From positions 1-34,560 of the forward strand of contig JAJRRB010000063.1 in the NCBI GenBank assembly GCA_024279915.1: a DNA stretch of 34,560 bases, given 5' to 3'. The notes beneath the pieces were generated by a model. The model had not been told where the DNA came from. It ran no database searches and was given only the letters and a program-made list of their open reading frames with translations. Positions 1,329 to 34,560 of this stretch are shown here, piece by piece. Numbering within the stretch: the first letter of the stretch is position 1; the number at the start of each line of letters is the position of its first letter. Source of the DNA: Deltaproteobacteria bacterium. GTDB lineage: Bacteria; Desulfobacterota; Desulfuromonadia; Desulfuromonadales; BM103. Made by a program: the position numbers and the translations under genes.

Positions 1329-1435
1329 GCGTTGGCGCAATAAGCGACAACGCTTATAACCGCAAAGCATCCCGCGTTCAATGCGGGTGCTTTGTGGAAT
1401 GAGAAACATGTGCCTTTAAATCAAAGATTACGTTT
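1329..1435 (+). repeat. 107-bp promoter/stem-loop repeat, copy 1
   Basis: This copy matches 13300-13406 at about 96 of 107 positions without gaps. It contains a sigma70-like promoter: TTGGCG at 1332-1337, a 17-base spacer and TATAAC at 1355-1360. Directly after the expected transcription start comes a stem-loop (about 1363-1394) whose arms are CAAAGC..CCCGC and GCGGG..GCTTTG. No ORF follows it closely. It may be a small RNA gene, a regulated leader or an origin-type site; I cannot tell which. Confidence 0.6.
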
Positions 1436-5120: not shown

Positions 5121-5256
5121 AGAGTGTGAAATTACAAAGGCTATAAGAGGGCTGCCGTCCTGAAAAGGGGCGTGTATCCCTCATGAAGTCATGGACTAGA
5201 AAAAGAATGTAAGTGACCGATAATAGCGAGTAATTATTAGATAAGGAGGTACTCGT

Positions 5257-6435
5257 ATGCGTAAGTCTAAAACTATCAAGATGACGGTAAGAAGTCTAAG
5301 TAAATTACAGCCACCCCCAAAGAACGCCAGCAGTCCAAGTAATGAATGGACTTGTGCTCAGCAGGCCAATCTTGCCCTTGCACACTATAAGAGTGGCGCA
5401 ATGGCGTGGCGTTTCAAGGCAAAGCTGGGTGACGAGCGTATAAACATGACGCGCGGTCGTTACCCAACTTGGGGGATTGATGAAGCCATCGAGTGGGCTC
5501 GTGAGATGAGGCGGCTTGTAGACCAAGGCATTGATCCCCGCTACCACACTAACGGTAATGACGATGTAACGCTTCGTGATTTTGTTACGAAGAGTTTCAA
5601 GCCTCACGTAAAGAAGCATTACAAGTCCTGGAAAAATGCTGTTGGCATGCTCAACAAGCGAATCGTCAAGCACTTCGGTGATCGAAAACTCAAGGCGATC
5701 GCAAAAAAGGAAGTCGGCGCGTTCCACCGTGCACTGACAGAAGAAATCAGCGGCACGACGGCTAATCGGTACTTGGCCTTGCTTTCAAGTCTTTACAAGA
5801 TGGCGATCGAAGAGGAGTTGGTCGAGATCAACCCTGCTCGCGGGGTTAAAAAGGCCCCGGAAAACAAGTCCCGAGATCGTTACTTGCATGCAGATGAGTT
5901 TGAAAGGTTCATCAAAGTTCTAGAAGCGAATCTGCATAAACCGTCGTACCAGTTGATCTTCATTTTGATTGCACTTGGCCCTCGTAGCGGCGAGCTAAAA
6001 GATCTCCGATGGTCCGACGTAAATCTGTCGGATGCCACCCTCTATTTGCATGATACGAAAAACGGTGAAAGTCGCTATGTGGCAGTCAACAGCGTTGCGC
6101 TTGACTTGCTAACAAATATGCATAAAAAGCGACGTCGGTCCAGTCCCTGGGTTTTCCCAAGCAAGAAAGGTCAAAGTGGTCATCTGGTCGATATCCGGCA
6201 CCCTTTCAAGGCTATTTGCGAAGCCGCTAAAATCAAAAATATCAGACCTCATGATTTACGTCGTAGCCATGCAACGCAGCTTTTAAACGCGGGTGTGGAC
6301 GTAATGATTGTGAAGGAAATTCTTGGTCATAAATCTCTCAGGAGCACCCAAGTTTACGCGCGAGTTACGACATCCTCGATGGCTAAATCAAGTGAAATTG
6401 CCTCAGCCAAGATTAGGGAGGCGATGAATGGTTAA
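5257..6435 (+). CDS. Tyrosine recombinase (element integrase)
   Basis: The 392-residue phage-type integrase has an N-terminal arm-binding region with DERINMTRGRYPTWGIDEA, a core-binding SAM-like domain (about 103-200) and a C-terminal catalytic domain. All catalytic residues are visible: Arg243 (GPRSGELKDL), Lys268 (DTKNGESR), His332 and Arg335 (RPHDLRRSHAT), His358 (LGHKSL) and Tyr367 (VYARV). It should cut and join attachment sites; the tRNA 3' halves near 34 kb are the likely sites of this or a related enzyme. AAGGAGGT at 5243-5250 precedes the ATG and sits between arms CGAGTA and TACTCG that could partly mask it. The polymerase follows after 83 bases and a hairpin. Confidence 0.95.
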   Translation: MRKSKTIKMTVRSLSKLQPPPKNASSPSNEWTCAQQANLALAHYKSGAMAWRFKAKLGDERINMTRGRYPTWGIDEAIEWAREMRRLVDQGIDPRYHTNGNDDVTLRDFVTKSFKPHVKKHYKSWKNAVGMLNKRIVKHFGDRKLKAIAKKEVGAFHRALTEEISGTTANRYLALLSSLYKMAIEEELVEINPARGVKKAPENKSRDRYLHADEFERFIKVLEANLHKPSYQLIFILIALGPRSGELKDLRWSDVNLSDATLYLHDTKNGESRYVAVNSVALDLLTNMHKKRRRSSPWVFPSKKGQSGHLVDIRHPFKAICEAAKIKNIRPHDLRRSHATQLLNAGVDVMIVKEILGHKSLRSTQVYARVTTSSMAKSSEIASAKIREAMNG

Positions 6436-6464
6436 CGAGAGGGTAGGTGATTACAAACTCAATG

Positions 6465-6493
6465 CTGGCCCCGCTCATTTGGGGTGGGGCCAG
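6465..6493 (+). terminator. GC-rich stem-loop before the polymerase gene
   Basis: Arms CTGGCCCC (6465-6472) and GGGGCCAG (6486-6493) are perfect, but the T-tract behind is weak (TTGCTTT). It lies between the recombinase and the polymerase, just before the polymerase ribosome binding site AGGAG. It may be a weak terminator or an attenuator. Confidence 0.55.
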
Positions 6494-6518
6494 TTGCTTT
6501 CTATCACAGGAGATAACA

Positions 6519-7502
6519 ATGCAAGAAATGATTGAAGAGTATCGAGAATTTTTTGACCTGATGAAGGTCAACCGGAAGAAGTCGGTCATATACGACGAGG
6601 TGTATTTCGTAGCAATTGATGCTGAATGGTACGAATCGGGCGGACGAAACGTCATCTTGAGCTACCAGCTTGCGTCAGTTTCTGAGTCAGCAGTCAATAA
6701 CATCATCCTCTACATGCCGCCGGGTAAACGCATGAAGCTCTGTGAACTCGTTGAGGCCGGAATTAAGTCAGTTAACGGCGGACAACTTCCTCTCTTTAAA
6801 CCCGGTCGAAAGGTTCTTGTTGTTCTGATAGCGCATAATTTTACAGCAGAATGGAGCGCCCTTGATGACCGCAACGCTGATTATATCACCGAAAATCTGA
6901 TGGTGATCCGTAAAACGCCTGTGACGAAGAGGGCGATCAAAATTAACCTGTCTGATTGCACTTCCGTCGATGTTCATTTCTACGACAGCATGCACTTGGC
7001 CCCTGCTGGTTATAAAAGCCTGCAGGCCATGTCGACTTTGCTGGGTGAAAAGTCTCTTGAAAAGGACGATATCTCTCAAACAGACAAAGAGAACATGAAC
7101 CTTTTTTTGCAACGTGACCCCGTCGGTTTTGAGCGCTATGCATTAAGAGATACGGAGGTGACACTCAGGTTGTTTGTCCTCCTTCAGAAATCTTTGAACA
7201 TGCTCGCATATGGTGAGATTAGGCAATTGTTTCGCACCTTAGCTGCAGCTTCTGTTGATGGATTTCTGGAATCTAATCCCTGGTTCGTAAATTACCGTAA
7301 AGCTTTGCGACGACCTGAGTTCTGGGATGCGAAGCGTCTTGCCGAACGTGCCTTTCATGGTGGTCGCAACGAAGGGTTTTTTGTTGGCCGAACCGAAGAC
7401 CATCCTGAAAGCCAAGACAAAGTCTGGGTCGATGTCGACTTTTCTGGTTGTTACCCGACTGCCATGGCTTTGTGTCCGAAAATCAAAACAGAGGAGGGTT
7501 AG
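6519..7502 (+). CDS. Family B DNA polymerase (piPolB-like), N-terminal part: exonuclease domain and motif A
   Basis: This 327-residue piece holds the 3'-5' exonuclease domain and the first catalytic polymerase motif. Exo I is AIDAEW (Asp34, Glu36), Exo II is around IAHNFTAEW (His106-Asn107, with Glu where Asp is usual), and Exo III is YALRD (Tyr207, Asp211). Motif A is DFSGCYP with catalytic Asp307. The ATG at 6519 follows AGGAG and is preferred over an upstream in-frame codon inside the hairpin. The frame ends at a TAG (7500-7502) only 20 residues after motif A, and the same frame continues at once with ATG at 7503. It cannot polymerise alone, because motifs B and C are in the next piece. 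Motif order and context point to a pipolin-type polymerase split in two, or one polypeptide made by readthrough. Confidence 0.85.
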   Translation: MQEMIEEYREFFDLMKVNRKKSVIYDEVYFVAIDAEWYESGGRNVILSYQLASVSESAVNNIILYMPPGKRMKLCELVEAGIKSVNGGQLPLFKPGRKVLVVLIAHNFTAEWSALDDRNADYITENLMVIRKTPVTKRAIKINLSDCTSVDVHFYDSMHLAPAGYKSLQAMSTLLGEKSLEKDDISQTDKENMNLFLQRDPVGFERYALRDTEVTLRLFVLLQKSLNMLAYGEIRQLFRTLAAASVDGFLESNPWFVNYRKALRRPEFWDAKRLAERAFHGGRNEGFFVGRTEDHPESQDKVWVDVDFSGCYPTAMALCPKIKTEEG

Positions 7503-7505
7503 ATG
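7491..7505 (+). promoter_or_regulatory. Strong ribosome binding site at the polymerase split
   Basis: GAGGAGG at 7491-7497 lies 5 bases before the ATG at 7503, which directly follows the TAG of the first piece. This arrangement would let ribosomes start or restart on the second half and argues that the second half is translated. Confidence 0.7.
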
Positions 7506-10025
7506 CAATACCTGCCTCTTAAATACAAAATTTATGACAAAGTTTTTGCCAGTCTGGAAGCTGAAAAGGTTGCACCTCTGACGATTCGAAATGCCAAGCG
7601 GGCATTGAAGAACTCAGTCCGAACTTTTGATCGATATCTTAAACGTCTGAAAAATGGAAATCATGCCTGGGTCATTCGTCAGGCGGCGATAGTTGTCGAC
7701 AATACGTTGATTAACAAATGGGCTCAGGAAGTCAAAGAAGCTGATGAGAAAGGCGATGATCGTTTTGAGACCTTTTTGATCCCAGGTTTTGCGCGAGTGC
7801 GGTTCAGCTTTCCTGATGATGTTCAATATCCTTGCCTACCTGTCCGTGATCCACATTTTGGCCTGATTTATGTTCAGAAGGGTGAGACCTATGCCACGGC
7901 GGCTGAGATCCTTCTTGCTTTGCAGGCTGGTGCCACAGTTGAGGCTTTGACCAGTGTTGAGTTTTCAGTGGTAAGCAAATACGGGAGACCCGAATGCCCT
8001 TTTATGCCCTACCTCAAGGGTTTGATTTCAGAAAGAAAGCGATACAAAGCTGAAGATTCAGTCTCCTCGAAGATCATGGAAAAAGCTTTAAAGGAGTCTG
8101 TAAACAGTACGTATGGAAAAACAGCGCAAGGCGTTAATCCCCGTAAAGTGGTGCAGGCTCATGATGGCGATACAGAGATCTTGGGGCCATCAAAAATCAC
8201 CGAGTCAATTATGGCGAGTTTGACCACCGGTCTTGCCCGAGCGGCTCTATCTGCGGTTCTTCTCGCAATTGAGCGTTTCAACCAAGGGAAAACAGAAAAA
8301 GATCAAATCAGTATTGTCTCCGCGACAACTGATGGGTTGCTGATAGGGCTACCGGCTCCATCAAAATACACAGTTGTCGGAGACTACTATTCCAGCCCCT
8401 CCCACGAGGAAATGGCCGCTGGAGCGACGCCAGAATTTATTGAAAAGCCGGAGCCGAAGATTGCCGATGTTCTAACCCGTTTCGGCTGTGGAGAACTCTT
8501 GGTGCTTCTGGAGGACTATTTGCCACTACGGCAAATGCGACATTCTAGAAGAGTGCTTACAGATGATGATACCTACCTTGAAATCAAGCATTTCGCTGAC
8601 GAGGTGTCTGGTTATAAAACCCGCGGTCAAAAGGCGAGGCTGTCAACTCAGCATTGTTCATTTATGGCTAAGTTTGGTCAGCGGCCTCCCTTCAGCGACA
8701 TCATCTCTGATCCAGAAGAGCGCAAGAACGTCATGGCGACAGGCGGAATAGCCAAAAATACAATTGAAGCTAAATGGATTGAAGAATATGCCAGTTTAGG
8801 AGATGGAAAGGTTCGCGAATACAATTTTTATACCCTCAACTCGTTTACAGAGATCCAGAATGGCTTGGCTCTAGATCTCACACAAAAAGTCACTACACGA
8901 AAGTTCAACAGCGACTTCGACTGTAAACGTAAATTCAAAAAAGTCATATATAAAGACGGTTCTACACAGATCTCTCCTGTAACCATTCCTTTTGAAACAC
9001 ATGCCCAGATGAAAAAAACTCGCGCTGTGTCACAAGCAATTCGTAAAGCCGGATATATGGCGACTCCTGAGCGAATTCTGGAACAGATCGACTTGCAGGT
9101 CAAGGCAACTAGAGCCCGTGGTGGAACTCCTGTGACCCTAGCCCGGTTGATGTTGCGTGGTGTTCTGCAAGGGCACATTCCTATGAATCAAGCTATCGCT
9201 GATTATGCTGCCCTTGCGCAATCGCTGAATGATGCCTGGATTGAGTTAGGTTTGGACAATACCGCACCGAAGGTTTGGTCAATATCTGATCTAAAAAATG
9301 CCAAACGTGGACTTTGGGAACCTGGTTTCATCCATGAAACCTTACCTCTTGTTGATTTGCTGGAACGATTGTGCGTCATTTTCGGGGCTGATCTTGAGAC
9401 TGTTAAAGCATTAGTTTTTGTCTCTGACAGTAGTCTTGATGAAAGTGTCGGTTTGATTGAAGACGTAGCAAAGGCTGTCGTGCTTGCGCCACGCCAAGGG
9501 ATTGCTCCTTTTTCCACACTCTATATAGAGGGTTCCCTACCGACCAGACAACGTGTACTCGATGCCTTCCATCCCCACCTGACGGAATCACGATTATCTC
9601 AACTGATCAAAACGAGTTTTGTGCCGGAGCAGCGCGCCAGTTCCGATCGACCACGCATTCGACGATTGCTTGCACGCCTGGGAATAAATGGGGTGCTGGC
9701 AGCAACCTGTGCCCGAGTTCTTGCGCCGGTTAAAGAACGCAAAGTTCGGGATCGGAAAATGCCAAAGAACTCGAAATGTACGGAAATGTTTGTTCAAGCA
9801 CTCTTTCAACCCGACATCGTTTCATTTCACATTGATAAAGCGAGGTTGTTGCATCATTTCGCTGAATACGATCTTACACGCGAGATTTACGGCTCATTGC
9901 GTCAGCGTAAATTCACAGCCCGTGTGCTCAGTAACTCATCAACCAACCGTCGTCAGATAAGGCAGATGGCGAAGAGGTTGGGTATCGATCCTCACCCCTT
10001 TTTCAATGCACTTCTGAATCAGTGA
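7503..10025 (+). CDS. Family B DNA polymerase (piPolB-like), C-terminal part: motifs B, C and KTRG
   Basis: This 840-residue piece continues in the same frame after the TAG. The first ~95 residues are a helical, Lys/Arg-rich segment, in the place where pipolin polymerases carry a specific insertion between motifs A and B. Then come GFARVRFSFPDDVQYPCLPV, motif B KESVNSTYG (Lys197, Asn201), motif C SATTDGLL (Asp277) and KTRG at 372-375. From memory, KTRG replaces the KxY motif in primer-independent polymerases. The last ~300 residues form an extension I do not recognise. Such enzymes replicate DNA without an added primer. With the first piece it would make about 1,168 residues, longer than the E. 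coli pipolin enzyme as I recall it. It lies 6 bases upstream of the next gene. Confidence 0.85.
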   Translation: MQYLPLKYKIYDKVFASLEAEKVAPLTIRNAKRALKNSVRTFDRYLKRLKNGNHAWVIRQAAIVVDNTLINKWAQEVKEADEKGDDRFETFLIPGFARVRFSFPDDVQYPCLPVRDPHFGLIYVQKGETYATAAEILLALQAGATVEALTSVEFSVVSKYGRPECPFMPYLKGLISERKRYKAEDSVSSKIMEKALKESVNSTYGKTAQGVNPRKVVQAHDGDTEILGPSKITESIMASLTTGLARAALSAVLLAIERFNQGKTEKDQISIVSATTDGLLIGLPAPSKYTVVGDYYSSPSHEEMAAGATPEFIEKPEPKIADVLTRFGCGELLVLLEDYLPLRQMRHSRRVLTDDDTYLEIKHFADEVSGYKTRGQKARLSTQHCSFMAKFGQRPPFSDIISDPEERKNVMATGGIAKNTIEAKWIEEYASLGDGKVREYNFYTLNSFTEIQNGLALDLTQKVTTRKFNSDFDCKRKFKKVIYKDGSTQISPVTIPFETHAQMKKTRAVSQAIRKAGYMATPERILEQIDLQVKATRARGGTPVTLARLMLRGVLQGHIPMNQAIADYAALAQSLNDAWIELGLDNTAPKVWSISDLKNAKRGLWEPGFIHETLPLVDLLERLCVIFGADLETVKALVFVSDSSLDESVGLIEDVAKAVVLAPRQGIAPFSTLYIEGSLPTRQRVLDAFHPHLTESRLSQLIKTSFVPEQRASSDRPRIRRLLARLGINGVLAATCARVLAPVKERKVRDRKMPKNSKCTEMFVQALFQPDIVSFHIDKARLLHHFAEYDLTREIYGSLRQRKFTARVLSNSSTNRRQIRQMAKRLGIDPHPFFNALLNQ

Positions 10026-10031
10026 GGACTG

Positions 10032-11093
10032 ATGGATTCGTATTATTTTCCAGTAATTGATGCCGAAACTTTTGTGGTTGATGAAGTTCGCACTGAAGCT
10101 AACGGTGCAACCAGAAGGGAATCTTTGCGTGATGAACTCTTGGTGTTTCACTGCATCCGAGCCGGTCCATTGACAAGAAAGATATTTGTTTTTGCGTACG
10201 CCGCTGTATCGAGCGGTGAACGTTTTCAGCGAGTTACGATCCGTAGGAAGGTTGATCGCAAAACCAGGAATATCAAGCTTCGGGTCGAGCCTGCAGCACA
10301 GTTTTTGAACTTTTTGCTCAAAGAGGCCAAACAGAATTGGTCGAAAGAAGAGAGGCGAAGAAAGATGAAAGTCCTAGATGATGAATTTGCTGAGGCGATG
10401 GGTTTTATGCGCCAAAAGCTTGGTCTTGGAGGGGCAAAACCTCCAAGTTTTACGTATCGAGTCACCGATGATGCCGCTGCCGCGACCGGTGATATGGAAC
10501 TGCAGAAGATATTGCGCACAAAAGTTACAGAAGGGTCGCTGTCCGAGAAGCAACGGTATCAGTTAAAGAGATTTCTTGAAGAAGGATATCCCTTGGATGC
10601 TGAAGCGGTCATGACTGCAGTGCGGGCGACTCAGTCACGAGAGCACATCAGTGCTATTTCCCTGAAATCAATTGATGGGAAACAACAGGTGACGATCGTC
10701 AACGCAGAAGGTCAACGGTTGACCATTTTGGAGCATAAGTTTCGGGATCTGCTAAAGCATCCAGACTCAGATCGGCTTTTGCACAAATACACCTGGCAGG
10801 ATAGTAAGAGCAGAGAGGTTGATTTTGTTTTCTCTGGAGAGCCCGAAGGAATTGTTGTCGCCAGACTAAACACAGCAAGTTGCGTGTTAGACGTACTTCG
10901 TCTGGATGAAGCGAGTCGTACTCATTATGATCGTGCCAGATTTGTCTTAGATCTTGATTATGTCTGTTGTCTGTACATCGTGCTGCAACGTATCCGCGAT
11001 GACCGTGAGCGTTATGACCGTTTATTGGAACAGTCTGATGCCTCAGTCGGTTTTGAATCATTCAACGGGGTTTTGAGCCCCGAGTATCTTTAA
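10032..11093 (+). CDS. Unrecognised protein downstream of the polymerase
   Basis: The 353-residue product is not recognised. It starts six bases after the polymerase stop with GAGGA as ribosome binding site, so it is almost certainly in the same operon. The N-terminal half is basic and includes a charged KEERRRKMK helix. The middle has a LSEKQRYQLKRFLEEGYPLDAEAV helical segment, and the C-terminal half is mixed and acidic near RLDEASRTHYDRARFVLDLDYV. No catalytic motif or membrane segment is seen. The tight linkage suggests a replication accessory protein, but this is inference only. Confidence 0.7.
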   Translation: MDSYYFPVIDAETFVVDEVRTEANGATRRESLRDELLVFHCIRAGPLTRKIFVFAYAAVSSGERFQRVTIRRKVDRKTRNIKLRVEPAAQFLNFLLKEAKQNWSKEERRRKMKVLDDEFAEAMGFMRQKLGLGGAKPPSFTYRVTDDAAAATGDMELQKILRTKVTEGSLSEKQRYQLKRFLEEGYPLDAEAVMTAVRATQSREHISAISLKSIDGKQQVTIVNAEGQRLTILEHKFRDLLKHPDSDRLLHKYTWQDSKSREVDFVFSGEPEGIVVARLNTASCVLDVLRLDEASRTHYDRARFVLDLDYVCCLYIVLQRIRDDRERYDRLLEQSDASVGFESFNGVLSPEYL

Positions 11094-11103
11094 GGAGAAA
11101 AAA

Positions 11104-11817
11104 ATGAGTAAAGGCGAAGATAAAAATTTACAAAATGTAGTGTCTGAATCATCCGTAAAAGAGAAGTCTCAGACTAAAACTGCAAAGCCCCTGGAAGAGT
11201 TACTCGGAGGTGTTGTTAAAGCAAATGAGGCACTGTCTCTGGGGCTATCCAATCTGGCAACGCTGTCCGAAATTGCCGGTGGCCGGATCTCGGTCGCTCC
11301 TCTTTTTAACAAGCCCTTCTTGGAAGGTGCGATTGGCTTTCGTCGGTCGGGTGGAAGTTTGGGTCTAACTGTCGCCTGCGGTACGGCTCAAGCCCAGACG
11401 ATCCCTCTGGGTAAGTATGTCGCGCTGGTGGAGAAAATGTATGACCCTGATCGCCCCTCGATCGTATTGCAAAAACCTTCCGACCCTGACAACAAACAGT
11501 CTGGTCGCGGGATGATATTGAGTCGCATTGTCCCTGGTTCTTCAGCGATCGTGATTGGCTTGGGTTATTCAGGTCGTATCGTGGAAAAGCTCGAAGACTA
11601 CGTTACAGCCGACGTTTATTATCTGAGCCGGTCGGTGCTGGCAGCCTTTTATATCGCAGCAAAAATGCAGCTGAGCACGGAGGATACTCTCAACGAGCTT
11701 ATCACCGCTTTTGAAGGTTGGTACAAGTTCGGTATTCCGCTGGATCATTGCAATCCATACGAGCTGGGGGGTGCCATGGTGAAGGATTCTTCTGTACAAG
11801 GAAAGACACTGGTGTAA
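11104..11817 (+). CDS. Unrecognised protein, polymerase operon
   Basis: The 237-residue product is not recognised. It has a polar, disordered-looking N-terminus rich in Lys, Ser and Glu (1-35), then a compact Gly/Ala/Leu-rich domain (about 45-215) without clear transmembrane helices. AAGGAG lies 5 bases before the ATG, and the gene begins 10 bases after the preceding stop, so the polymerase and the two unknown genes form one transcription unit. TAA is followed at once by TAG and then by a strong hairpin at 11827, which probably closes the unit. Function cannot be assigned. Confidence 0.68.
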   Translation: MSKGEDKNLQNVVSESSVKEKSQTKTAKPLEELLGGVVKANEALSLGLSNLATLSEIAGGRISVAPLFNKPFLEGAIGFRRSGGSLGLTVACGTAQAQTIPLGKYVALVEKMYDPDRPSIVLQKPSDPDNKQSGRGMILSRIVPGSSAIVIGLGYSGRIVEKLEDYVTADVYYLSRSVLAAFYIAAKMQLSTEDTLNELITAFEGWYKFGIPLDHCNPYELGGAMVKDSSVQGKTLV

Positions 11818-13299: not shown

Positions 13300-13406
13300 G
13301 CGTTGGTGCGATAAGCGACAACGTGTATAATCGCAAAGCATCCCGCGTCCAATGCGGGTGCTTTGTGGAATGAGAAACATGTGCCCTTCAATCAAATAAC
13401 ACGTTT
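13300..13406 (+). repeat. 107-bp promoter/stem-loop repeat, copy 2
   Basis: This copy is about 90 percent identical to 1329-1435, of equal length and in the same orientation. The promoter is stronger here: TTGGTG at 13303-13308, a 17-base spacer and a consensus TATAAT at 13326-13331. The following stem-loop has unchanged arms, and its only difference from copy 1 lies in the loop, which suggests that the fold is under selection. Confidence 0.65.
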
Positions 13407-18474: not shown

Positions 18475-19172
18475 GAAGGATTGTAAAGAACCAGACGCCT
18501 GAGTGCTTGCAAACATTTATCAACGAGCAACTTGGGATCGAACCTGAGCCGGTCAATGTAAACTACAGGTGTTTTCGCGCCAAAGCAGATTTGCTCGCTA
18601 TTCTGACGGCTGAGCAATTCGGTCTGTGTGGTTATACGGGCGCACCTGTCGATGAAAGAATCTCAAACCTTAAAAGCCCATCCGGTCAAGCTTCATTCAG
18701 AAATCATATCGAGCACTTGAAGTGCCAGGCAACTTGCCGGCAAGAATTGACGGATTCTGGTGGCGAGTATGGCAAAGACCTTTGCGATGATCTCAACTAT
18801 TTCAACATGATCGCTGCGGTTGAAGTGCGGGGGGCAGAAAACGAACACTTCGGTGCAGTAAAAAAGAGAGATCTTCCATTAGCTGTGCTGCCTACCCAGG
18901 GAGAATGTGATGAATACTTTAAATTTCGCGAGGTGGATGGTGGCATAGATGGTTTGAACGAGGATGCTGAGAAGAGTATCAGTGTGCTTGACCTTGATCA
19001 TGACACCCTTAAAGGCTGGAGAAAATCGGCTGTTGATGCGTGGCTAGATCCTGAGGTTATTCAAACTCGTCAAGATTTTGAGGCCGTGGTCCAGGAAATG
19101 GAGGCGCTTGTTGAAGAAAAGCTTCCAGAATACGCATTTGTCATCGGGTCGATTGCAAAGGAGTATCTATGA
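18471..19172 (+). CDS. ptuB: PtuB-like HNH endonuclease
   Basis: This 233-residue protein begins MRRIVKNQTP, like the TIGR02646/PtuB family. Its HNH core reads HIEHLKCQ (His79, Glu81, His82) followed by DLNYFNMIAA (Asn109-Asn112). The zinc CxxC usually found ahead of the core is only partly kept (LCGYTG), so metal binding there may be lost or different. As the partner of the ATPase it would be the toxic effector that cuts nucleic acid on activation. It overlaps the ATPase and hsdR by ATGA. Confidence 0.8.
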   Translation: MRRIVKNQTPECLQTFINEQLGIEPEPVNVNYRCFRAKADLLAILTAEQFGLCGYTGAPVDERISNLKSPSGQASFRNHIEHLKCQATCRQELTDSGGEYGKDLCDDLNYFNMIAAVEVRGAENEHFGAVKKRDLPLAVLPTQGECDEYFKFREVDGGIDGLNEDAEKSISVLDLDHDTLKGWRKSAVDAWLDPEVIQTRQDFEAVVQEMEALVEEKLPEYAFVIGSIAKEYL

Positions 19173-20311
19173 TGAAACAAACCTCCGAAGCCGCCTTTGA
19201 AACTGCTATTGAGACCGTCTTGCTGGGCAACGGTTACGGCAAGCTCCCCTCAGGCGCATTCGATACCAAGCGGGCAATCTTTCCTGAAGAAGCGTTAGTC
19301 TTCATCCGAGAAACCCAAGCAAAGACCTGGGAAAAGCTGGAAGCCCTACACGGACCTGAAACCAGCGAGCGTGTGTTGCAGGCCCTTTGCAAATGGCTGG
19401 ATACTCACGGCGCACTTACCACGCTGCGTCACGGCTTTAAGTGTTTCGGCAAGACTCTTCGTATTGCCTTCTTCCGTCCGGCCCATGGACTTAACCCAGA
19501 GCTTGAGGGGCGCTATCGGGCTAACCGATTGGGTATTACCCGGCAGCTTTACTTCAGCAATAAGAATCAAAAATCGCTGGATGTGGTGCTATCGGTCAAC
19601 GGCGTTCCCGTGGTAACCCTGGAGCTAAAAAATCCTCTCTCTGGCCAGACGACGGCCAACGCTATCCATCAATATCGCCACGATCGTGATCCGCGCGAAC
19701 CAATCTTTCTGTTTACTAAGCGTACCCTGGTGCATTTTGCTGTTGATACCGAAGAGGCGCACATGACGACGCGCCTGGCTGGTACCAGTACCCATTTTCT
19801 TCCGTTTAACCGGGGGAGTCAGGGTGGTGCAGGCAATGAGCCTGACAAGGACGGTCGTAACTACAAGACTGCTTATCTTTGGGAAGAGGTATTGCAACGG
19901 GACAGTCTGCTGGATCTTCTGGAGCGTTTTCTTCACCTTAATGTCGAAGAAAAGGTTACGGACGAAGGTAAAAAGGTTCGCAAGGAGACCATGATTTTCC
20001 CCCGTTATCACCAGCTGCAGGCCGTACGAGAATTGGTGATGGCGGCGAGCTCCGAAGGCGTGGGCCACAACTATCTGGTGGAGCACTCGGCGGGCAGTGG
20101 GAAGAGCAACACCATTGGCTGGTTAGCACATCGGCTTTCGTCTCTGCATAGCGGTCAAGATGAGCGCATCTTTGACAGCGTGGTGGTGATAACCGACCGG
20201 GTCGTGCTTGACCGCCAGTTACAGAATACGATCTATCAGTTTGATCATCGACAAGGTGTGGTGTTGAAGATTGACGAGGATTCGCGCCAGCTTGCAGAGG
20301 CCCTGGAATAG
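19169..20311 (+). CDS. hsdR: HsdR, N-terminal part: nuclease domain and Walker A, cut by in-frame TAG
   Basis: The 380-residue first part of the type I restriction subunit contains the PD-(D/E)XK nuclease (LDVVLSVNGVPVVTLELKNP, with the catalytic Asp and Glu-x-Lys) and helicase Walker A HSAGSGKSN. It stops at TAG 20309-20311 in the middle of the first RecA-like domain (RQLAEALE, then stop). The same frame continues directly with GVPIIITTLQKFPF, which is the expected next stretch of HsdR. So one in-frame amber codon interrupts an otherwise full-length gene of about 1,010 codons. Unless the codon is read through, restriction should be lost while modification remains. Confidence 0.9.
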   Translation: MMKQTSEAAFETAIETVLLGNGYGKLPSGAFDTKRAIFPEEALVFIRETQAKTWEKLEALHGPETSERVLQALCKWLDTHGALTTLRHGFKCFGKTLRIAFFRPAHGLNPELEGRYRANRLGITRQLYFSNKNQKSLDVVLSVNGVPVVTLELKNPLSGQTTANAIHQYRHDRDPREPIFLFTKRTLVHFAVDTEEAHMTTRLAGTSTHFLPFNRGSQGGAGNEPDKDGRNYKTAYLWEEVLQRDSLLDLLERFLHLNVEEKVTDEGKKVRKETMIFPRYHQLQAVRELVMAASSEGVGHNYLVEHSAGSGKSNTIGWLAHRLSSLHSGQDERIFDSVVVITDRVVLDRQLQNTIYQFDHRQGVVLKIDEDSRQLAEALE

Positions 20312-20314
20312 GGT

Positions 20315-22201
20315 GTGCCGATCATCATCACCACCTTGCAGAAATTCCCCTTTGTCTCTGGGCAGTTGATGAAGATGGCCGAGGAACGTGGCGAAGGGAA
20401 AAGTTACCTGCCGACTCGCAAGTACGCGGTGATTATCGACGAGGCGCACAGCTCCCAATCTGGCGAGACGGCGACCGAACTGAAAGGTGTGCTGGCTGGA
20501 GCCGAACTGATCAAAAAAGCACGGGAAGCAGCTCAGGAGGACGGTGAAGTTGACCTGGAACGATTGTTTCGTTCTATGGCTAAGCGCGGTCGCCAGCCCA
20601 ACATGAGCTTTTTCGCTTTTACCGCTACCCCGAAACACAAGACCCTTGCGATTTTCGGGCGGGATGGTGAACCCTCTCATCGATACACCATGCGCCAAGC
20701 TATCGAGGAAGGGTTCATCGAAGATGTACTCAAAAGCTATGTCACTTACAAAACCTACTATCGGTTGACCAAAAAGGCCGAGGACGATCCCAATGTTGAG
20801 CGCAAGAGGGCGGCGCGGGCTCTTGCGCGTTTCATGCGCCTGCATCCCCACAACATTGGTCAGAAGACCGAGGTGATGGTTGAACATTTCTACCAGCATA
20901 CTCGCCATAAGATAGGCGGTCACGCCAAGGGGATGGTGGTGACGGGGTCCAGACTTGAGGCTGTTCGCTACAAGCTTGAGTTTGATCGCTATATAAGTGA
21001 AAAGGGTTATCCGATAAAGAGTCTAGTCGCCTTCTCTGGTACGGTGGAAGACGACAAAGTCCCGGAGAAAACCTACACCGAAGTCGAGATGAATGACGGG
21101 GTGAGGGAAAGAGAGCTGCCTGAGACTTTTGCTAAGACTGATTATCGAGTGTTGTTGGTGGCCGAAAAGTACCAGACCGGTTTTGACCAACCTTTGCTAC
21201 ACACTATGTACGTGGATAAACGGCTAGCGGGTATTCAGGCAGTGCAAACCCTTTCACGGCTAAATCGCACACACCCACTTAAGGACGATACCTTCGTTCT
21301 CGATTTCGTTAATGATCCTGAGGAAATCCAGGAAGCTTTCCGCCAGTATTACGACGGGTCAGTTATCGGCGAAGATGTTGATCCAGATCGTCTTTATGAG
21401 GTGAAGGCGGAGCTCGACGAGACCGGCATTTACCTTCAAACTGAAGTGGATGAGTTCTCGCATATTTTCTTTGCACCCAAGCGTCGTCAAAGTCCTACTG
21501 ACCACAAGAATATGAATGCCATTCTTGATCAGGCAGTTGCACGCTTCATCGACCTACAAAACGATGAAGAGGAAGAAGCAGAATTGTGGCGCGGCAAAGT
21601 CCAGGCTCTCCGCAATCTCTACAGCTTCCTGAGCCAGGTCATTCCTTATCAAGATAGTGATCTGGAAAAGCTATTCACTTACTTGCGTCACCTGGCCTTA
21701 AAGCTGCCCAAACGTAAGAGCGGGCCCGGATATCAGTTTGACGAGGAAGTGGATCTCGCCTATTACCGGCTGCAAAAAATCAGTGAAGGGTCGATCAACC
21801 TTAGCGAAGGTTATGCAAAACCACTTGATGGGCCGCGTGAAGTGGGATCAGGTATGGTTCGAGAAGAAAACGTTACTCTGTCCAAGTTGATCGATCTGAT
21901 CAACGAGCGCTTTGGGGGTGAACTCACGGAGGCGGATCAACTTTTCTTTGACCAACTTTCGGAGGCTGCCAGCCAAAACGAGACGTTGCGTAAAGCAGCC
22001 GGGGTAAATTCACTCGATAAGTTCCAGCTGGTTTTTAGACAAGTTCTGGAATCGCTGTTCATCGAGCGTATGGAACTAAACGAAGAGCTTTTTTCGGACT
22101 ACATGAGTAAGCCGGAATTGCAGGAAGTTATCTCAAAATGGCTCGGTAGCCAGGTGTATAACAATCTTGTTAACCGCAGCAACAGCCCTTCAGGGGACTG
22201 A
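20315..22201 (+). CDS. hsdR: HsdR, C-terminal part: helicase domains after the TAG
   Basis: This remainder of HsdR lies in the same frame. It has Walker B YAVIIDEAHSSQSG, motif III FTATPK, the C-terminal helicase motifs (EKYQTGFDQPLLHTMYVDKRL; QTLSRLNRTHP) and the helical domain that contacts the methylase core. The GTG at 20315 has no convincing ribosome binding site, unlike the second half of the polymerase, so independent translation is doubtful. Either the gene is a pseudogene by one nonsense change, or TAG is decoded. Confidence 0.85.
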   Translation: MPIIITTLQKFPFVSGQLMKMAEERGEGKSYLPTRKYAVIIDEAHSSQSGETATELKGVLAGAELIKKAREAAQEDGEVDLERLFRSMAKRGRQPNMSFFAFTATPKHKTLAIFGRDGEPSHRYTMRQAIEEGFIEDVLKSYVTYKTYYRLTKKAEDDPNVERKRAARALARFMRLHPHNIGQKTEVMVEHFYQHTRHKIGGHAKGMVVTGSRLEAVRYKLEFDRYISEKGYPIKSLVAFSGTVEDDKVPEKTYTEVEMNDGVRERELPETFAKTDYRVLLVAEKYQTGFDQPLLHTMYVDKRLAGIQAVQTLSRLNRTHPLKDDTFVLDFVNDPEEIQEAFRQYYDGSVIGEDVDPDRLYEVKAELDETGIYLQTEVDEFSHIFFAPKRRQSPTDHKNMNAILDQAVARFIDLQNDEEEEAELWRGKVQALRNLYSFLSQVIPYQDSDLEKLFTYLRHLALKLPKRKSGPGYQFDEEVDLAYYRLQKISEGSINLSEGYAKPLDGPREVGSGMVREENVTLSKLIDLINERFGGELTEADQLFFDQLSEAASQNETLRKAAGVNSLDKFQLVFRQVLESLFIERMELNEELFSDYMSKPELQEVISKWLGSQVYNNLVNRSNSPSGD

Positions 22202-27749: not shown

Positions 27750-27785
27750 ATGACTTTCTTTAATCAATCGGGACTTGACAGTTAA
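27750..27785 (+). CDS. Possible 11-codon leader ORF
   Basis: AGGAG at 27738-27742 is seven bases before an ATG whose short frame encodes MTFFNQSGLDS. Its TAA overlaps the ATG of the helicase gene (TAATG). The helicase start itself lacks a good ribosome binding site, so translational coupling from this mini-ORF is plausible. Confidence 0.4.
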   Translation: MTFFNQSGLDS

Positions 27786-29872
27786 TGACTACGGTCATCA
27801 AGCAGATCCGGAGCGCTGACGAAGCGATCTGTCGGAATATCGAATCGCTCGCTGACCAGCGGGCATTGCTCTCGCAGAACGTCCTCTCACAACTCCGTAA
27901 CCTAGTCGAGGGCGTTGCGGTTCGTCTCCACACGGGCTCATCCGATGTCGAATTCAACTACGCCGCGGTTGAACCAGGACTCACCTTCGTCAAGAGCAAG
28001 GCAAGGTTCAACTTCCTCGGTAAGTCCCACAAACTGATTCAGAAAAGTGCTTCCCACTACACACTGGACGGGGATGCTTCTGAGCGTTTGATGCTCAAGT
28101 ACTATGAGTACCTCTACCGCATCCGCAGCTTGCTTCAAGACAACTGTGGAGTCTCAGTGCTGTCGAACCTTGAGGCCTTCCCGGTTGACCTCGATCCGTC
28201 ACTACGGGAGTACCACGAGAAGATCGCAGCAAGGGTTGAGGCGGTTCGTTCAAATCCACCGGTCAGCAGCCCCAGGGATCGGTACTACATCCACAAAACG
28301 CGCCCGTTCTTCCTCGGCGGGCGTATCTACTACGAGGTCACCTTCTACCGCGCCGTCAACAAGGTGAGTAAGTTCGACCGCATCATCGCCTTCACCGATA
28401 TCGACATGACCGACAAGTACTCGGCCATGTTGACGCTCCAGCGGGACTCGATCGAAGTGCTTGGCCAGACGATGCCGATCACCATCATCCGCGAGTGGGA
28501 GGTCTCGATTCGCCCGTGCGAGTTCAACAACTTCTCGCGCCTACTGGGCATAGCCATAACCGTTCAGACCAAGTCGCAAGAGTATCGCTACTTGATGCGG
28601 GGGCTGACGGCGGGCTCCGGCAGCTTGCTCGACTTGGTTGACATACCCGACGAGCAGTACGCGACTGCGAGGGCGGTAGGTACGGCTGGCGTCGCCAAGC
28701 CGCAGATTTTCCCTGTGTCGGATGAAGCGCGCCGCATCGTGAGGTCAGCTTCCCCAGGGTACAATATCCTCCGATATCTCTTGCTGAGGATGCACAATCA
28801 GATCCTCAAGCCGCAGTATCAATGGGATGAATGTGGTCTTCTCTCCGGGATGAAGCTTCTGTACGGCTGCATCCCCTTTGACACAATGCCGTTCTGTACA
28901 TCGCTGCCAGGGCACAACCCCCGGTATTGGGATCTCGTCGAGAGCCTCGATGTGGCCGGTCGGAACCACGAGTTGCTCGTTCGATGTGTGAAGAACAACG
29001 TGGAGCGTCATGGAATCCTCTATACGCCCGTGGCCGACCTCGATGAATTCGGAGACGTCAACGCCTTGATTTCCACGTATAACAGCAAGCTCTACTACAA
29101 ACATAGAGAGCATCGGGCGCTTATGTCCGACAAGGGGCACGTCTTCATCCGCGGGTATGAGAAGGATACTGTCTCCATCGTCGAAGAGCTTCAGGCTTAC
29201 TCATTGTCCGGGATCGCCGGTTACACCCAAGCCGTCGAGCGCTGGTTCGATGAAACATCTCATGGCATCGACGACCCAGTGAAGGAGGATGCGCTCAAGC
29301 AGTTGTTCAGCCAGTCGCGCGTAGCTCTGATCTACGGAGCAGCTGGTACTGGCAAGTCAACGATGGTGGACCACATCGCGCACTACTTCAACGATAAGGA
29401 GAAGCTCTTCCTCGCACACACCAACCCAGCAATCGACAACCTCAAGCGCAAGGTGACCGCGCAGAATTCGGCCTTCAGGACGATCAGCAGCCAGATATAC
29501 AGGAGTGCCTCAGATCCCGAGTACGATCTACTCGTCATTGACGAGTGCAGTACCGTGAGCAACGCTGACTTGATCAAGGTACTGGAAAAGACATCCTTCA
29601 AGCTACTTGTGCTCGTTGGCGACGTCTATCAGATCGAGTCGATCCAATTCGGCAACTGGTTCGGAATCATTCGTTCATTCATCCCGAGCACGTCGGTGTT
29701 CGAGTTGACGACGCCATTCAGAACAACGAACGACTCTCTCTTGAGCCTCTGGGACAAGGTTAGGGCCATCGAAGACGACATCGCCGAGGTTATGGCCCGC
29801 CACGGGTACTCGACCGTGCTCGACACGACGCTGTTTGAGGCCCAGGACAGGACGAGATTATCCTGTGTCTGA
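27785..29872 (+). pseudogene. SF1 helicase/ATPase, N-terminal part, frameshifted
   Basis: This 695-codon part starts with a long N-terminal region without a recognised domain (1-500), then a superfamily 1 helicase core. Walker A is YGAAGTGKST (518-526 region) and Walker B is LLVIDECSTV (Asp586, Glu587); GDVYQIESI and LTTPFRTT follow. The frame is lost at 29844-29853, where AGGAC occurs twice in tandem; removing one copy restores the frame with EAQDEIILCLNYDG. Base composition is higher in GC than in the DUF262 genes. A defence helicase is plausible from the context, but the copy is probably inactive. Confidence 0.8.
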
Positions 29873-30486
29873 ACTACGATGGCCTCTATGGCATTAACAA
29901 CATCAACCGTTTTCTACAGAGCAGCAACCCCGGTAAAGCAACCACCTGGCGCGTCTCCACATACAAGGTCGGAGACCCTGTCCTCTTCTACGAGACCGAG
30001 CGGTTCCGACCGGTGATTTATAACAACCTTAAAGGCCTGATCGTCGGCATCGACCGCATACCCGGTCAAATTCAGTTCGACGTTGAGCTTGATCGGCCGC
30101 TTAGCGAGTTCGATGTAATCGGTGATTAGCTCGAATGGGTGGAAGGCTCGACAGTGCGCTTCTCCGTATTCGAGACTGACATCAGCGATGAAGACGACGA
30201 CTCACTAAACACCACGGTGCCATTCCAGGTGGCCTACGCAGTGTCGATCCATAAGGCGCAGGGCCTCGAGTATGACTCCGTCAAGATAGTAATCACCGAT
30301 GCCAATGAAGACGACATCACACACAGCATCTTCTACACAGCCATAACTCGGGCACGTGAGCGTCTGCGGATCTTCTGGACGCCCGAAACGCAGCAGGGCG
30401 TTCTGCAGCGCCTTCATCGCAACACCAACCCAAAGGACGTCCATCTTCTTGCTAGCCGTAATGGCCTTACGCCAGTCAGCGGATGA
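29851..30486 (+). pseudogene. SF1 helicase, C-terminal part, with in-frame TAG
   Basis: This stretch continues the helicase after the 5-bp duplication: DEIILCLNYDGLYGINNINRFL and a TYKVGDPVLFYET segment. A TAG at 30127-30129 (IGD, stop, LEWVEGSTVRF) interrupts it. The last part has the UvrD/RecD-type C-terminal motifs VSIHKAQGLEYDSVKIV and FYTAITRARERLRIFW. The gene therefore carries two lesions, and a full version would be about 900 codons. A GTG at 30139 could give a 115-residue fragment, unlikely to be functional. Confidence 0.8.
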
Positions 30487-33998: not shown

Positions 33999-34420
33999 GT
34001 TAAATCAATGGCTTAGTCTATTGTACAGCTAAGACCTTTTTGCTTTTTCAGCCTTTGTGGTACCACTGTGGTGCCCTTGTTGTAGAAAGTATTCTGGCAG
34101 CATTCCCTACGGTCACAGGGTATTCAGGATGATTGATTCGTCACAGGAAATGAGTTGGTTCCAGGTTGGTTTTATGGGACAAGAGGGGTTCTACAGGGGG
34201 CCGTGTTTAGGCCGTGTGGCCATGAACGCAGAGGGTTTAACCTGTTAGGGCGGCGCTAGCCCCGACCTTTCCCTTTTTGCCTTGAAACGCTGAGTTAAGG
34301 TGCTGAATTTGTTGAACAATACCTATCTTTGTGTGAACTGAGCCTGATTGTGCCATTTGGTGAAATAGTCGTTATTTATCAGTACGGTAGCTGGCTTTTT
34401 GTTGCCGTTTGCGCGCAAAA
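33999..34420. other. Residual segment between two tRNA scars
   Basis: These 422 bases have no supported gene. They hold a terminator (34010-34041) and GTGGTACCACTGTGGTGCC-like inverted sequence near 34060. They may be what remains of an older integrated element. Confidence 0.45.
34010..34041 (+). terminator. Terminator behind the tRNA-Arg half
   Basis: Arms GGCTTAG (34010-34016) and CTAAGACC (34029-34036, one bulge) are followed by TTTTT, as expected behind a tRNA gene. Confidence 0.6.
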
Positions 34421-34465
34421 CTTTTAATCAGATGGTCGTGGGTTCGATCCCCCCCCGGCTCACCA
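34421..34465 (+). other. attR-like scar: 3' half of tRNA-Lys (anticodon UUU)
   Basis: The sequence from loop CTTTTAA reads as tRNA-Lys: TCAGA, GGTCG, T arm GTGGG-TTCGATC-CCCCC, acceptor CCGGCTC, A and CCA. There is one mismatch in the T stem (T opposite C). No 5' half (GAGCCGG) precedes it at tRNA distance, so it is not an intact gene. It is best read as a second integration scar. Confidence 0.68.
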
Positions 34466-34473
34466 TTTTTAAA

Positions 34474-34508
34474 TCCGCACCCAGTAGTGTTAAACTGCTG
34501 GGTGCGGA
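34474..34508. terminator. Stem-loop behind the tRNA-Lys half
   Basis: Arms TCCGCACCCAG (34474-34484) and CTGGGTGCGGA (34498-34508) are perfect. The hairpin separates the tRNA-Lys half from tRNA-Glu and may be a processing or termination signal. Confidence 0.6.
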
Positions 34509-34520
34509 AACATTTTAAAT

Positions 34521-34560
34521 GTCCCTATCGTCTAGCCTGGCCCAGGACACCGCCCTTTCA
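34521..34560 (+). tRNA. tRNA-Glu (anticodon UUC), 5' part, cut by the window end
   Basis: GTCCCTATCGTCTAGCCTGG, then CCCAGGACACCGCCC and TTTCA, fits tRNA-Glu up to the anticodon loop, with UUC at 34557-34559. The 3' half lies beyond the window. It marks host chromosome. Confidence 0.85.

What the first reader, a model, noticed from the sequence alone, without database searches (positions are those of the whole stretch)
6519..10025. Pipolin-type DNA polymerase split by one in-frame TAG between motifs A and B
The two frames together carry Exo I-III, motif A (DFSGCYP), a Lys/Arg-rich insertion, motif B, motif C (TTDG) and KTRG, and they sit next to a tyrosine recombinase. I read this as a primer-independent family B polymerase. 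The split falls 20 residues after motif A, and the second half has its own GAGGAGG and ATG directly behind the TAG. A naturally two-subunit piPolB would be new to my knowledge. Readthrough or a recent nonsense change are the alternatives.
Basis: partly seen in the sequence, partly recalled or inferred. Interest (0 to 1): 0.85.

Follow-up and report, generated by a model that had tools for sequence, protein, structure and literature searches.

The report
A primer-independent DNA polymerase in two pieces
In the draft genome of a bacterium, a mobile element carries a primer-independent DNA polymerase gene cut in two by a stop codon, with an unusually strong ribosome-binding site and a new start codon right at the cut, so it is probably made as two proteins; a chance mutation or a draft-genome error remains the main alternative.

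Summary
Two frames, 6519-7502 and 7503-10025, meet at TAGATG and together carry the family B motifs. By sequence they encode a piPolB rather than a phi29-type polymerase.

All seven other loci found have sense codons at this point. Five are uninterrupted; two are broken elsewhere. So the split is not a conserved family trait.

The host draft has many nonsense lesions. I counted 12 other in-frame stops inside genes (8 TAG, 4 TAA) in 830 kb, two of them in this window. Taken alone, that argues for a plain nonsense mutation.

One feature argues against it. The ATG behind this TAG has a Shine-Dalgarno of -12.5 kcal/mol. Of 8,316 internal in-frame starts in those 830 kb, one is as strong. None of the 12 other stops has a restart better than -5.8. 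The chance of such a start within 10 codons is 6e-5 to 2.6e-4.

Best reading: a translationally coupled, two-polypeptide piPolB (about 0.55). Recent nonsense or assembly error: about 0.38. Readthrough is unlikely: RF1 is intact, and no CUA tRNA or PylS was found.

The parts
5257..6435 (+). tyrosine recombinase (integrase) of the element
   Evidence: Phage_integrase E 1.5e-34; phrog_1 E 5e-63
6464..6494 (+). terminator-like hairpin (13 pairs) between integrase and polymerase genes
6519..7502 (+). piPolB N half, 327 aa: exonuclease motifs and polymerase motif A; ends at TAG 7500-7502
   Evidence: 43-55% identity to five open relatives
7492..7497 (+). Shine-Dalgarno AGGAGG of the second cistron, 5 nt before the ATG, duplex energy -12.5 kcal/mol
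7490..7519 (+). possible hairpin holding the Shine-Dalgarno with UAGAUG in its loop; weak support (7 of 200 shuffles and 11% of 4,000 random 41-mers fold as well)
7503..10025 (+). piPolB C half, 840 aa: motif B, motif C (TTDG), KTRG and the long C-terminal extension
   Evidence: (DNA_pol_B_2 E 1.2e-4, below its cut-off)
10032..11093 (+). 353-aa protein found behind piPolB in all seven other loci; no Pfam or PHROGs match
11104..11817 (+). 237-aa protein found behind the former in all seven other loci; no Pfam or PHROGs match
34420..34465 (+). 3' part of a tRNA-Lys gene, probable att site at the right end of the element
   Evidence: identical to the 3' part of the complete tRNA-Lys on contig C15

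Best explanation
This is a piPolB of an integrative pipolin in a bacterium of the same class as a Geobacter MAG, whose gene has become a two-cistron unit. Ribosomes translate the exonuclease/motif A part (327 aa) and stop at UAG; translation then restarts at the AUG directly behind it, from a very strong Shine-Dalgarno, to make the motif B/C part (840 aa). The two chains would assemble into one polymerase whose catalytic aspartates of motif A and motif C sit on different polypeptides. Shown: the two open frames, the complete set of motifs, the strong start site, the position of the break in a variable loop, and the open downstream two-gene module. Inferred: that both chains are made, that they associate, and that the complex polymerises DNA without a primer.
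For: Restart site: SD -12.5 kcal/mol, ATG at the codon after TAG. Of 8,316 internal in-frame ATG/GTG/TTG in long frames of 830 kb of G000 one is as strong, and none of 3,227 ATGs. Chance of such a start within 10 codons of a random codon is 6e-5 in G000 (166,674 codons) and 2.6e-4 in the same-genus genome G001 (77,407). Only 2 of the 22 gene starts listed for the window are stronger, and 2.4% of 289 gene 5' ends in G000 reach it. At the 12 other interrupting stops listed the best restart within 15 codons is -5.8, and 4 of the 12 have none. Both halves keep the motifs with no further lesion. Identities of N part, C core and C extension to G016 (0.44/0.42/0.29) are like those between the open relatives G160 and G016 (0.46/0.44/0.31). 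The break lies in a loop where G176 and G244 carry about 24 and 27 extra residues (counted). The two downstream genes are found behind piPolB in 7 of 7 other loci and are open here.
Against: Single case. None of the 7 other loci is split here: 5 are open (1,199 aa, or 1,223-1,278 codons stop to stop) and the two others are broken at other places. The host draft carries many nonsense lesions (12 others counted in 830 kb, judged partly by eye), two of them in this same element, one with a frameshift in the same gene. The contig's ends look like those of a k=141 short-read assembly, with a filled and an empty site in one assembly. Against G160 the C extension is less alike than the N part (0.55/0.48/0.36), a steeper drop than in most pairs of open relatives. 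No expression data. The hairpin over the start is not clearly above chance. The structure model was too poor (pLDDT 46) to judge the interface.
Confidence: 0.55

Rival explanations
1. A recent nonsense substitution, or a base error or strain mixture in the draft assembly, in an otherwise ordinary single-chain piPolB; the gene is a young pseudogene or intact in the living cell.
For: In-frame stops elsewhere in the same genome: NuoG (TAG; the only TAG in the list, same-genus orthologues of the same length open; codons CAT, CAA, CAG, AAC, AAC, AAT in six relatives), arginase, a histidine kinase, CheA, an ABC permease, Wzy-TPR, HsdR, helicase (TAG); UvrD tail, a VWA protein, a propeller protein twice (TAA). 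The own paralogue on C98 has two frame breaks and G058 one. The same-genus control G001 showed no convincing case in 27,938 aligned codons. Truncated piPolBs are reported in E. coli pipolins (PMC7385651, passages).
Against: It needs the stop to fall by chance directly before an ATG with a Shine-Dalgarno of a strength seen at 1 of 8,316 internal starts; the other 12 stops have nothing like it. Over a very large scan such coincidences can still turn up.
Confidence: 0.38
2. The UAG is read through (suppressor tRNA, pyrrolysine or partial recoding), giving one full-length chain.
For: 9 of the 13 interrupting stops listed are TAG and none TGA (no TGA has P 0.03-0.07 under single substitutions), and they sit in otherwise open genes.
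Against: RF1 intact, 558.5 bits. No CUA anticodon among the 44 tRNAs found (150 of 165 first-look candidates were scored). PylS only as two weak hits far below the cut-off. 77 of 372 frames of 300 or more codons end in TAG. The TAG excess is within what single substitutions give (P 0.07-0.14). The contexts of the three TAGs of this window share no motif by eye.
Confidence: 0.05

Closest known systems
piPolB of pipolins (recalled type case: E. coli 3-373-03; here compared with S. epidermidis plasmid pSE-12228-03)
   Same: Exonuclease and polymerase motifs, motif C with a single Asp, integrase next to it and a tRNA-overlapping att site as in integrative pipolins
   Different: Two open frames instead of one; a long C-terminal extension shared with the relatives found here; only 23-27% identity to the plasmid enzyme in the aligned parts
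Split archaeal PolB3 of Methanobacteriales and Nanoarchaeum equitans (PMC4104785, passages only)
   Same: A family B polymerase made from two genes
   Different: Those are linked to inteins; here no intein sequence is seen, the two frames abut at TAGATG, and the polymerase is of the piPolB group in a bacterial mobile element
Protein-primed PolB (phi29)
   Same: Family B motifs; same pPolB+piPolB cluster (PMC7544198, passages)
   Different: No significant BLASTP match of the C half (E 2.9); motif C here lacks the first Asp

Membership tests
piPolB / pipolin | Family B polymerase motifs Exo I-III, A, B, C | tested here: met
   read by eye; shared out over two ORFs
piPolB / pipolin | Motif C lacks the first Asp | tested here: met
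   TTDG in window and relatives; feature taken from a PMC7544198 passage
piPolB / pipolin | Closer to a known piPolB than to protein-primed PolB | tested here: met
   (C half E 2e-21 to pSE-12228-03, 2.9 to phi29). That this plasmid is a pipolin is recalled; a PMC9710591 passage names S. epidermidis plasmidic pipolins without the plasmid name. One yardstick of each kind; no tree was built.
piPolB / pipolin | Integrative element with tyrosine recombinase and att overlapping a tRNA | tested here: met
   right end at the 3' part of a tRNA-Lys. The left att was not found in the contig.
piPolB / pipolin | One uninterrupted polymerase chain, as in the open relatives | tested here: not met
   TAG at 7500; 5 of 7 other loci meet it
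piPolB / pipolin | DNA synthesis without a primer | not testable with these tools
   needs an enzyme assay
Translationally coupled split gene | Stop and start abut, with a strong own Shine-Dalgarno | tested here: met
   TAGATG, SD -12.5
Translationally coupled split gene | Same split kept in relatives | tested here: not met
   none of 7 loci; the nearest are at most 55% (N) and 42% (C) identical, so no close kin could be checked
Split intein polymerase | Intein pieces at the junction | tested here: not met
   by alignment only: sequence on both sides of the junction aligns with open relatives, leaving no room for an intein; no intein model was run
UAG recoding / pyrrolysine | PylS or CUA tRNA, loss of RF1 | tested here: not met
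   (draft, 98.45% complete)

The most novel reading that the evidence does not exclude
A naturally two-subunit primer-independent family B polymerase: one active site whose motif A and motif C aspartates come from two polypeptides, made in a coupled way by termination-reinitiation at UAGAUG, arisen by gene fission in a variable loop without an intein.
Probability: 0.5. Interest if true: 0.75.

Novelty: new variant of a known kind. Interest (0 to 1): 0.55.

Why it matters
If real, it may be the first split piPolB: I saw no mention of a two-gene piPolB in the passages of PMC9710591, PMC7385651 and PMC7544198 or in the listings. The library lacks most subscription papers and the founding 2017 piPolB paper, so this is not proof of absence. 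It would show how a replicative polymerase can be cut between motif A and motif B and still be kept, and it would offer a ready-made two-chain polymerase for assay. If it is a nonsense allele, it shows how easily draft genomes give apparent split genes, and that the Shine-Dalgarno at the break is a useful test.

Tried and rejected
Pyrrolysine and amber suppression: tested and rejected. The first Pyl query (PylC-like domain: none in G000) was a poor choice, as it also rings in 6 of 14 controls, B. subtilis among them. Finding close relatives failed: genome contigs with the C half 0 of 29 candidate stretches, with alignment A2 3 of 108 (the same loci as G016, G160, G222); viral contigs 0 of 4, 0 of 127 and 0; phages none. 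Metagenome contigs were not scanned (the cap was 0). PDB sequence search gave nothing credible. The AlphaFold model of a relative's core had pLDDT 46 (5 sequences) and was not used for fold searches; only a helical stretch behind the split (residues about 321-390 of that model) was confident. RNA hairpin at the start: kept only as weak. An extra codon at the break was considered as a sign of remodelling and dropped: it holds against G160 and G222 but not against G016. The coding-score scan for interrupted genes gave 38 candidate sites (21 TAA, 13 TAG, 4 TGA). I sorted gene junctions from interruptions partly by eye and by Pfam/NCBIfam on both pieces; the list also takes the two propeller stops and the helicase stop. 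CheA, the permease and the VWA case rest on one-sided family matches, and Wzy-TPR and the propeller protein on domain order or repeats. One candidate (C24:8638, TAA) was left out as unclear. The raw list holds many stops from antisense query frames, which I dropped by eye; I likewise discounted the two TGA hits in G001 there. G016 showed one frame-change candidate and G160 none.
Full report
WHAT IS THERE. The window is one whole contig (C57, 34,560 b) of a 3.83 Mb draft genome, G000, in 99 contigs. ORF-N 6519-7502 and ORF-C 7503-10025 lie in one frame, separated by TAG (7500-7502), with ATG directly behind it and AGGAGG 5 nt before the ATG. Motifs Exo I-III and A are in ORF-N; B, C (TTDG) and KTRG are in ORF-C. 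The integrase is at 5257-6435. The right end of the contig carries the 3' part of a tRNA-Lys gene and is identical over its last 141 nt to the end of contig C15, which has the complete tRNA. The left end shares exactly 141 nt with contig C23 before diverging. Shared ends of 141 nt suggest a short-read assembly with k=141 (that such a k is usual for some assemblers is recalled). C15 running straight past the tRNA-Lys into the same downstream sequence suggests occupied and empty sites in one sample.

FAMILY. The C half matches the polymerase of pSE-12228-03 at E 2e-21 and the N half at 1e-6; the C half gives E 2.9 with phi29. tblastn of the C half found 32 plasmid records (30 Pseudosulfitobacter, 2 Staphylococcus) and no phage record. 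A PMC7544198 passage states that piPolBs lack the first Asp of motif C; the window fits. I file it as a piPolB by sequence; its biochemistry is untested.

RELATIVES. A profile search of 277 genomes of the class, G000 included, gave matches in 9; two of these (G238, G245) are weak and may be other polymerases. The remaining 7 genomes hold 8 loci, the window included. G016, G160, G222, G176 and G244 are open (1,199 aa, or 1,223-1,278 codons stop to stop). G058 has a frame break behind motif C. The own paralogue on C98 runs through three frames. In other samples, each with G000 included, 2 of 58 near relatives, 3 of 136 of the order and 2 of 395 drawn from the phylum matched. That Geobacter's class is Desulfuromonadia is recalled. 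None of the seven other loci has a stop at this point. G160 and G222 have 7 codons between the conserved Ile and Tyr; G016 has 8, as the window does when TAG is counted. G176 and G244 carry about 24 and 27 extra residues in this loop (counted). The nearest relatives are at most 55% identical in the N half and 42% in the C half.

THE CASE FOR A PLAIN LESION. HsdR in the same window is cut by TAG at 20309 (TIGR00348 105-325 | 347-670). The PDC-S53-like helicase has a 5-bp tandem duplication at 29844-29853 and a TAG at 30127. In 829,825 bases of G000 I list 13 in-frame interrupting stops, this one included: 9 TAG, 4 TAA (two of the TAA lie in one gene). The sorting was partly by eye. NuoG is the clearest: same-genus orthologues of the same length are open, the G000 copy is the only one in the list with a TAG (G000 has another, open NuoG copy), and six relatives read CAT, CAA, CAG, AAC, AAC, AAT there. 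UvrD aligns past its TAA with an 88% identical, open G001 protein, and a gene 8.7 kb from the NuoG stop shows a frame change (C75:198354). G001 gave no convincing case in 27,938 aligned codons, against 55,242 in G000 (raw list filtered by eye). So a TAG in a gene of this genome is not remarkable in itself.

THE CASE FOR A REAL SECOND CISTRON. The start behind this TAG is remarkable. Its Shine-Dalgarno pairs with the 16S tail at -12.5 kcal/mol. Among 8,316 internal in-frame starts in long frames of those 830 kb, one is as strong, and none of the 3,227 ATGs. The chance of such a start within 10 codons of a random codon is 6e-5 in G000 and 2.6e-4 in G001; at the very next codon, 6e-6 and 2.6e-5. 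At a laxer -9 the within-10 figures are 0.48% and 0.44%. The 12 other interrupting stops have best restarts of -5.8, -5.6, -4.0 or weaker, and 4 of 12 have no start in 15 codons. Allowing for 13 stops looked at, the within-10 coincidence stays below about 0.4%; it cannot be corrected for the unknown size of the first-stage scan. Against G016 the halves keep the conservation pattern of open enzymes; against G160 the C extension lags somewhat. The pair of downstream genes (353 and 237 aa), found in 7 of 7 other loci, is open.

READTHROUGH. RF1 is intact. RF2 ends in TAG, behind what reads by eye as the usual in-frame TGA frameshift site. 77 of 372 long frames end in TAG. None of 44 tRNAs found reads UAG. 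PylS hits stay below 20 bits against a cut-off of 178, which 1 of 14 control genomes passes. The excess of TAG among interrupting stops is near what single substitutions give (P 0.07-0.14; absence of TGA P 0.03-0.07).

CONCLUSION. I favour a translationally coupled two-chain piPolB at 0.55, a nonsense or assembly lesion at 0.38, readthrough at 0.05. Whether the chains assemble and work is inference. The structure model was too weak to add to it.

PRECEDENT. Split family B polymerases are known in Methanobacteriales and N. equitans and are linked to inteins (PMC4104785, passages). Truncated piPolBs are reported in E. coli pipolins (PMC7385651, passages). I saw no report of a two-gene piPolB; the 2017 founding paper is not held.

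Noticed in passing
window 19169-22201: HsdR of a type I restriction system with PtuA/PtuB-like ATPase and HNH genes is cut by one in-frame TAG at 20309; methylase and specificity genes are open.
   Followed up: yes
window 27785-30486: PDC-S53-like helicase broken by a 5-bp tandem duplication (29844-29853) and a TAG at 30127.
   Followed up: partly
window 10032-11817 and L004, L010, L013, L022, L030, L031, L181: Two proteins without Pfam or PHROGs match (353 and 237 aa) lie behind piPolB in all eight loci: a conserved accessory pair of these piPolBs.
   Followed up: partly
L004 (C98) 5254-9070: Second pipolin in the same genome whose piPolB runs through three frames; by eye the shifts look like single-base losses in short runs.
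   Followed up: partly
L087 9637 (C75:189637), L109 15364 (C24:75364): NuoG and arginase genes of the host draft carry single in-frame TAGs; NuoG relatives have sense codons there.
   Followed up: yes
window 34420-34560 and L188 5724-5864: Filled and empty tRNA-Lys site appear in one assembly, so the element may be absent from, or excised in, part of the population.
   Followed up: partly
window 1329-1435 and 13300-13406: A 107-nt direct repeat (90% identical) flanks the integrase-piPolB-ParB part of the element.
   Followed up: no
window 6464-6494: Strong terminator-like hairpin between integrase and piPolB; by eye the C98 copy has a hairpin-like sequence at the same place (L004 about 5278-5302).
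   Followed up: no
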